Positions 50,928 through 51,380 of a stretch of DNA of 64,000 nucleotides are shown one piece after another. The number at the start of each line of letters is the position of its first letter. Position 1 is the first letter of the stretch. The stretch is taken from the NCBI RefSeq assembly GCF_003335045.1, contig NZ_QOZG01000001.1:372001-436000 (forward strand), read 5' to 3'. A program made the position numbers and the translations under genes. Under the pieces are notes generated by a model. The model was not told the DNA's origin and did not search any database. It saw only the letters and a list, made by a program, of their open reading frames with translations. This DNA comes from Paramesorhizobium salinisoli (GTDB lineage Bacteria > Pseudomonadota > Alphaproteobacteria > Rhizobiales > Rhizobiaceae).

Positions 50928-50960
50928 CAAAAAGGCCGCCCGGAAATTCCGTTGCGGCCT
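50928..50960 (-). terminator. Attenuator terminator of trpE(G)
   Basis: A perfect AGGCCGC/GCGGCCT outer stem (50933-50939, 50954-50960) and an inner CGGAA/TTCCG stem are followed by TTTTTGTTT. An alternative partner GCGGCC lies immediately after the leader stop, giving the antiterminator. Confidence 0.85.
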
Positions 50961-51000
50961 GATCCCTTTGCGCGCGTGCAAAACGACTGCGTGGCCGCTC

Positions 51001-51048
51001 TTAGCGGACCCACCACCAGCCATTCGTGACAATGCGCGTGTTGTTCAT
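51001..51048 (-). CDS. trpL: Tryptophan leader peptide
   Basis: A 15-codon frame, MNNTRIVTNGWWWVR, with three successive Trp codons (residues 11-13). The rhizobial trpL of Sinorhizobium is a 14-residue peptide with the same WWW core and is known to control trpE(G) attenuation; its transcript also yields a small RNA. The stop lies 40 bases before the terminator hairpin. No ribosome site is visible and the promoter predicts a leaderless mRNA, as known in Sinorhizobium. Confidence 0.9.
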   Translation of the reverse strand: MNNTRIVTNGWWWVR

Positions 51049-51126: not shown

Positions 51127-51161
51127 GGAAAAAGTCCGGACCGTCGAAGCGGTCCGGACTT
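51127..51161 (-). terminator. Terminator of the candidate sRNA (or of putA)
   Basis: A perfect 11-bp stem AAGTCCGGACC/GGTCCGGACTT with an 8-base loop, followed on the minus strand by TTTTTCCTTT. It lies between putA and the trpL promoter, so it also insulates trp from readthrough. Confidence 0.85.
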
Positions 51162-51235
51162 CCATTGTCCGTTTTGAAGGGACAATATATCAGGCAGGGG
51201 TTAGGCGGGGGCTGGTTCCCTGTCCTGATCTCAGA
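51127..51235 (-). ncRNA. Candidate small RNA between putA and trpL
   Basis: Predicted transcript of about 110 nt. It begins with a weak GTTCT/AGGAC hairpin, then a C-rich single-stranded stretch with CCCCCGCC and ACCCCTGCC. A perfect ATTGTCC/GGACAAT hairpin (51164-51186) follows, then a perfect AAGTCCGGACC/GGTCCGGACTT terminator (51132-51161) ending in TTTTT. A promoter lies at 51241-51269. This order is typical of bacterial sRNAs that pair with ribosome binding sites through C-rich loops. The alternative is a long 3' end of putA. No family was recognised. Confidence 0.6.
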
Positions 51236-51240
51236 ACATC

Positions 51241-51269
51241 CAAATACCTTGAGTATTAGATATTCGCAA
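51241..51269 (-). promoter_or_regulatory. Putative promoter of the candidate sRNA
   Basis: A -35 TTGCGA (51264-51269) and -10 TATTTG (51241-51246) with a 17-base spacer, in an AT-rich stretch. The predicted start is near 51235. Confidence 0.45.
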
Positions 51270-51380
51270 TACAACTATTAGGTGATCAAACATATGCAAT
51301 ATGGCTTAACACCTATCTAAGGTTGCATTGATTCGCAAGCAGGAAAACTTCATTTCCGAAGCTTTCTTGCGTTTTCTGTT

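What the first reader, a model, noticed from the sequence alone, without database searches (positions are those of the whole stretch)
51127..51269. Unannotated small RNA candidate between putA and trpL
A promoter-like pair (TTGCGA-17-TATTTG), a weak 5' hairpin, a C-rich single-stranded region, a perfect seven-bp hairpin and a perfect 11-bp terminator with T-run follow each other in about 110 bases, with no credible protein. The C-rich segments could pair with G-rich ribosome binding sites. Its position next to proline catabolism and tryptophan synthesis suggests a metabolic link, but that is only a guess.
Basis: partly seen in the sequence, partly recalled or inferred. Interest (0 to 1): 0.75.

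Follow-up and report, generated by a model that had tools for sequence, protein, structure and literature searches.

The report
Conserved small RNA beside tryptophan genes
The stretch between two amino-acid genes very probably encodes a small RNA of a family missing from the public RNA library, shared by related bacteria, with a nearly unchanging C-rich loop that may pair with messenger RNAs.

Summary
Its core (51231-51127, minus strand) folds into three hairpins: SL1 with a C-rich loop, SL2 and a terminator (z -7.2). It follows putA in 6 of 6 genus genomes. A covariance search blind to gene order found it in 29 of 394 family genomes; 23 of these have TrpE, which (in one case only a TrpG-like part) lies within about 2.2 kb downstream in 22, the other being cut by a contig end; six without TrpE keep the RNA. 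All 33 pairs of a 34-row alignment show changes on both sides, while the loop keeps CCYGCYW in 32 of 34. No Rfam family reaches threshold. Corrections: the C-rich run is a hairpin loop; a covarying 5' hairpin and an upstream box suggest a start near 51303 (about 177 nt); a proline or tryptophan role is unsupported. Best reading: an independent trans-acting sRNA with the loop as seed. Expression, Hfq binding and targets are unshown; two target tests found nothing specific.

The parts
51335..51370 (-). imperfect hairpin after putA, probable putA terminator; separates putA from the RNA gene and overlaps the -35
   Evidence: sequence; hairpins seen by eye at the same place in the other genus members, not folded separately
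51333..51338 (-). probable -35 element TTGCGA
   Evidence: sequence; aligned with CTTG-type sequence in the other 5 genus genomes. Weak match to consensus; the automatic scan does not pick it in the window
51310..51325 (-). conserved box CAACC-N3-GATAGGT over the -10 region
   Evidence: box pattern in 19 of 36 upstream regions against 0.9 expected; pattern written after seeing the sequences, and one of the 19 (L155) lies at another place
51127..51303 (-). proposed sRNA, about 177 nt; 5' end estimated, not mapped
   Evidence: box position, covarying 5' hairpin, terminator
51234..51265 (-).
   Evidence: forms in the single fold of each of 6 sequences; RNAalifold: 4 of 12 pairs with changes on both sides, 8 of 72 cells broken or gapped
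51189..51229 (-). SL1, core hairpin that carries the C-rich loop
   Evidence: all 11 pairs have changes on both sides in 34 rows
51202..51211 (-). loop motif CCCCCGCCUA (family consensus CCYGCYW), proposed seed
   Evidence: 32 of 34 rows
51163..51187 (-). SL2, second hairpin
51127..51162 (-). SL3, Rho-independent terminator with tail
51001..51048 (-). trpL leader peptide ORF (MNNTRIVTNGWWWVR), neighbour, not part of the RNA
   Evidence: sequence; RcsR1-like attenuator RNA 51029-50929 at 32 bits, below the gathering score of 60

Best explanation
The region encodes an independent small RNA of a family found in the window's genus (Phyllobacterium/Paramesorhizobium-like) and in related genera, usually upstream of trpL-trpE(G). 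It is made from its own promoter (about 51338-51310) and ends at its own terminator (51127). It probably acts in trans: the apical loop of SL1, CCCYGCUW, pairs with G-rich stretches of mRNAs, most likely around ribosome binding sites, probably with Hfq, and lowers translation or stability of several messages. Shown by comparison: gene, 3' boundary, three-hairpin core, nearly constant loop, presence without TrpE. Inferred: transcription, start, length, Hfq, base-pairing mode, repression, targets.
For: Single match in the own genome. All 6 genus genomes carry it after putA, two of them missed by blastn. Model search: 29 of 394 family genomes, 13 of 109 genera, E<=0.001. Gene order, not used in the search, agrees: TrpE (in G128 only a TrpG-like part) downstream on the same strand in 22 of 23 genomes that have it. 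Covariation: A7 24 of 33 pairs with changes on both sides, 0 of 500 shuffles; A8 33 of 33 pairs, 93.3% of cells paired against 70.2% shuffled and at most 52.3% slid. The cores folded singly give three hairpins in 29 of 29 by eye. Loop motif in 32 of 34 rows while stems change. RNA present in 6 genomes (G155, G231, G290, G419, G448, G010) with no TrpE at 1e-20, so it is not only a trp cis-element. In the 7 genomes of g147 the best promoter match lies 38-44 nt upstream of the core, e.g. TTGACA-17-TATAAG (G290) and TTGACA-17-TATAAA (G448).
Against: No expression data. Target tests gave nothing specific: the loop complement TAGCGGGGA has 23 sites in 7 g147 genomes, no more than the reversed control pattern (31 sites, my sum); 5 are the RNA's own loop, and of the other 18 only one place is shared, by two genomes, inside a coding frame. 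In 281 roughly called own-genome genes the loop prefers the ribosome-binding position (-8.8 against -5.8 to -7.0 kcal/mol elsewhere), but 8 shuffled loops do nearly as well (-8.0 against -5.2 to -6.3), so that preference follows from C-richness; starts were chosen partly by their Shine-Dalgarno match, which inflates the dip. In the window the promoter match is weak, the automatic scan prefers another place, and the 5' motif TACYNRA is not at the expected place. A7 and A8 are fitted to the model's structure, which inflates their pair counts. In a longer fold G005 loses SL2 to a long-range pairing. 49 of 60 further TrpE-upstream regions show no copy at E<=1.
Confidence: 0.6

Rival explanations
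1. The loop is a protein-binding or protein-titrating site rather than an mRNA seed, in the manner of RNAs that sequester a regulator.
For: A short motif held nearly constant at the tip of a covarying stem is equally what a protein site looks like; no specific mRNA target appeared.
Against: No protein for this motif is known to me; C-rich or GC-rich loops serve as mRNA seeds in EcpR1 and AbcR.
Confidence: 0.2
2. A cis-acting leader or readthrough terminator that controls trpL-trpE, or insulates it from putA.
For: TrpE or part of it lies downstream in 22 of 23 genomes that have it.
Against: Six genomes keep the RNA without TrpE; an RcsR1-like trpL RNA (below Rfam threshold) lies downstream in the window and in 13 of the 30 relative loci scanned; in G026 about 2 kb with an opposed gene lie between RNA and trpE; a strong terminator ends the RNA.
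Confidence: 0.08
3. 3' UTR or terminator part of putA, processed from its mRNA.
For: Directly after putA in all 6 genus genomes.
Against: A separate hairpin follows putA and a conserved box precedes the RNA; among 29 genomes PutA is in the locus only in the 6 of this genus, and in the five g17 genomes a PutR-like gene diverges upstream.
Confidence: 0.05
4. The family is already in print under other names, for example among predicted or Hfq-bound sRNAs of Brucella, Bartonella or Mesorhizobium.
Against: Word searches in five main texts found no anthranilate or tryptophan. One candidate, BSR1350, was dropped because its neighbour BMEI1351 is listed among penicillin-binding proteins and acylases. 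Published sequences and supplements were not available, so this stays open.
Confidence: 0.4

Closest known systems
EcpR1 (SmelC291), Sinorhizobium meliloti; PMC4414408, abstract and passages seen
   Same: Rhizobiales sRNA with a hairpin whose GC-rich, strongly conserved loop pairs with mRNAs; long (171 nt) and short (101 nt) forms
   Different: Loop UCCGCCGCAUCU, not CCYGCYW; encoded downstream of divK-pleD; two stem-loop domains
AbcR1/AbcR2; PMC9751625, parts 1 and 2 of section 6 read
   Same: Alpha-proteobacterial sRNAs with short C-rich seeds (CUCCCA, GUUCCC); several relatives here read GUUCCC in or at the loop
   Different: The window's RNA has neither seed by eye; other locus; no alpha-r family among the Rfam matches listed
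RcsR1 / rnTrpL (RF02552), the trpL attenuator sRNA
   Same: Neighbouring transcript on the same strand
   Different: Separate RNA downstream (51029-50929); ours carries no leader peptide
sar RNA (RF00262)
   Same: Weak Rfam resemblance of SL2 plus terminator (22 bits here, 34.2 in L121)
   Different: Below the gathering score of 43; a phage antisense RNA by recall

Membership tests
Any Rfam 15 family | score at or above the family's gathering threshold | tested here: not met
   window at gathering: 0 matches; 14 and 16 relative loci at E<=1: no listed match reaches its gathering score
RcsR1 / rnTrpL | contains trpL ORF with Trp codons and an attenuator | tested here: not met
   an RcsR1-like RNA lies downstream of ours
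EcpR1 | conserved loop UCCGCCGCAUCU | tested here: not met
   loop here CCYGCYW in 32 of 34 rows; EcpR1 loop from PMC4414408
EcpR1 | gene downstream of divK-pleD (as in S. meliloti) | tested here: not met
   window neighbours are putA and trpL-trpE
AbcR | M1 CUCCCA and M2 GUUCCC seeds | tested here: not met
   by eye neither is in the window's RNA; some relatives have GUUCCC only
Trans-acting bacterial sRNA (kind) | independent transcription unit with own promoter and Rho-independent terminator | tested here: inconclusive
   terminator met; promoter supported by conservation, weak in the window; transcript not seen
Trans-acting bacterial sRNA (kind) | structure conserved by covariation | tested here: met
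Trans-acting bacterial sRNA (kind) | base-pairs with target mRNAs | tested here: inconclusive
   no conserved or specific target found
Trans-acting bacterial sRNA (kind) | binds Hfq | not testable with these tools
   needs co-immunoprecipitation

The most novel reading that the evidence does not exclude
A previously undescribed, vertically inherited regulator whose nearly fixed loop (CCYGCYW) serves a core function unrelated to its trp neighbourhood, since it is kept in six genomes without TrpE, five of them 1.4-1.6 Mb, and stands in two tandem copies in two reduced genomes.
Probability: 0.35. Interest if true: 0.7.

Novelty: new member of a known kind. Interest (0 to 1): 0.5.

Why it matters
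It would add a structurally well-defined sRNA family to a group of Rhizobiales that ranges from soil and plant bacteria to small, reduced genomes. The near-constant loop gives a concrete seed to test, and the genomes that have the RNA but no TrpE separate the RNA's role from its genomic neighbourhood. It also shows a second RNA gene as a frequent neighbour of the trpL attenuator sRNA.

Tried and rejected
Known family: rejected, no Rfam match at threshold. Protein-coding: no ORF of 25+ codons over the core common to the six genus members; a mini-ORF seen by eye in the 5' region is not kept. Weak matches: G007 and G075 match only 35 and 26 bases, G007's on the terminator; dropped. Hits on the opposite strand of the terminator were left out. 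Of 80 named PutA loci 58 were searched with R1: 5 strong hits (the genus), 5 opposite-strand hits, and 3 weak ones; of these L065 and L067 look like degenerate copies after putA, L091 shows only a terminator. L065 and L067 were not scored with R2.

Of 114 genomes with TrpE I took 60 upstream regions, 40 from the top of the list and 20 from lower down, chosen by hand, leaving out those already known. 11 of 60 gave a hit at E<=1. I count 4 (L219, L208, L213, L214) by their loop; L166 and L167 (g17) lack the loop; L223, L209, L205, L170, L202 were not inspected. L214 did not pass the cut for A8. Order-wide: 3 of 397, none outside the family. The searches over more than 40 genomes use stricter filters that lose weak matches.

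Target search: see evidence against. Three of the 18 non-self sites sit just before a start codon (L234, L231, L233); by recall the proteins look like a VirB9-type secretion protein, a TraB/GumN protein and NuoK. None is shared between genomes and I draw nothing from them. Literature identity: BSR1350 rejected; BSnc135, BSnc140, BSnc121 occur in only one held paper, the review table; the sequence of BbsR9 was not in the passages seen.

Full report
What is in the window. On the minus strand, between the end of putA (51426) and trpL (51048-51001), the sequence 51235-51127 folds into three hairpins at -50.3 kcal/mol against -27.25 (sd 3.19) for shuffles, z -7.23: SL1 (51229-51189) with loop AACCAGCCCCCGCCUAAC, SL2 (51187-51163) and the terminator SL3 (51162-51131). 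No Rfam family matches the window at its threshold; at E<=10 the trpL attenuator RcsR1 shows at 51029-50929 with 32 bits, below its gathering score of 60. The own genome has one match.

Close relatives. BLASTN finds it in 4 of 6 genomes of the genus; reading the DNA after putA in all 6 shows it in 6 of 6. An RcsR1-like trpL RNA follows in all six: 98 to 139 nt after the core in G000, G003 and G005, about 430 in G002, 574 in G001 and 646 in G004.

5' end. In the genus the segment upstream of SL1 forms a hairpin in the single fold of 6 of 6; in the alignment 4 of its 12 pairs change on both sides, for example AU, GC and GU types at one pair, and 8 of 72 cells are broken or gapped. There CTTG (the -35) and CAACC-N3-GATA (the -10 region) are aligned in all six. 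In 36 family members (the 34 rows of A8 plus L065 and L067) a box of this form or CAACC-N3-GGT lies upstream in 19 (0.9 expected; one, L155, elsewhere) and TACYNRA, perhaps the first transcribed bases, in 18 (5.6 expected). 14 rows have both; in 13 the two starts are 23-24 bases apart; the exception is the window, whose TACYNRA lies elsewhere and which reads CATATTG at the expected place. The patterns were written after seeing the sequences, so the expectations flatter them. In the 7 genomes of g147 the best promoter match lies at the corresponding place. I therefore put the start near 51303, with a second internal start possible.

Wider family. A model of the six (R1) found 27 of 394 family genomes at E<=0.01. 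Seven non-genus hits with the loop were added (13 rows, A7; 24 of 33 pairs with changes on both sides) to make R2. R2 found 29 of 394 family genomes in 13 of 109 genera at E<=0.001, and 3 of 397 in the order, all in this family. G124 and G010 have two copies in tandem. In 60 TrpE-upstream regions, 4 more genera carry a copy recognisable by the loop; 49 regions show nothing at E<=1. So the family is patchy, not universal, in this family of bacteria.

Gene order as an independent check. The model searches did not use gene order. Of the 29 genomes, 19 show TrpE sequence within about 1.6 kb downstream on the same strand (in G128 only a TrpG-like part), and three more (G187, G026, G030) within about 2.2 kb; in G151 the RNA lies near a contig end; six have no TrpE at 1e-20 (G155, G231, G290, G419, G448, G010). 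PutA is in the locus only in the window's genus; in the five g17 genomes a PutR-like gene diverges upstream. L065 (Pseudochrobactrum saccharolyticum) and L067 (an unnamed Rhizobiales isolate) have a weak, degenerate-looking copy after putA (22.7 and 23.4 bits).

Structure and loop. In the 34-row alignment A8 all 33 pairs have at least one change on both sides; 93.3% of cells pair, against 70.2% in shuffles and at most 52.3% when partners are slid. The alignment is fitted to the model, which flatters these counts; the single folds of 29 cores, three hairpins each by eye, do not depend on it. In a longer fold G005 loses SL2 to a long-range pairing. In the loop, CCYGCYW stands in 32 of 34 rows; L153 and L161 differ by one base.

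Mechanism. Stems that change freely around a nearly fixed loop, own signals at both ends, and presence without TrpE fit a trans-acting sRNA with the loop as seed. That last step is inference. The complement TAGCGGGGA has 23 sites in 7 g147 genomes, against 31 for the reversed control; 5 are the RNA itself, and the only shared one lies inside a coding frame in two genomes. In 281 crudely called own-genome genes the loop prefers the ribosome-binding position, but shuffled loops nearly as much.

Known or new. It is not RcsR1, EcpR1 or AbcR by the features tested. No Rfam 15 family covers it. Of papers on sRNAs of such bacteria I saw: PMC9751625 passages and two thirds of one section; PMC4365724 passages and one section; PMC12772402, PMC7717549, PMC5596092 passages; PMC4845025 only a term search without hits. 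Others seen as passages: PMC7143759, PMC3927594, PMC4414408, PMC6141144, PMC1877810, PMC9416531. None of the word searches met a trp neighbour; sequences and supplements could not be used. Ten paper searches were made. I rate it a new family of a known kind, with a real chance that single members are listed in print.

Noticed in passing
L157 (G124) 1501-1589 and 1732-1826; L160 (G010) 1501-1587 and 1794-1889: Two tandem copies of the RNA in reduced genomes of about 2 Mb; in G010 TrpE was not found.
   Followed up: partly
window 51325-51311 and upstream regions of relatives: ACC-N3-GGT near the promoter in 9 of 29 upstream regions (0.45 expected; the window itself lacks this exact form) looks like a regulator's operator; the regulator is unknown.
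   Followed up: partly
L158 614-709 (+): Weak match to the Brucella sRNA family BASRCI153 (30.8 bits, gathering 137), which fits the guess that g17 is Brucella-like.
   Followed up: no
window 50929-51029 (-): The trpL attenuator scores only 32 bits against RcsR1 (gathering 60) although leader peptide and terminator are plain; the Rfam model may be too narrow for this lineage.
   Followed up: no
L002, about 1650-1800: In Phyllobacterium leguminum an inverted repeat (CCCGTCATCCTCGCC...) sits between the RNA and trpL, seen by eye.
   Followed up: no
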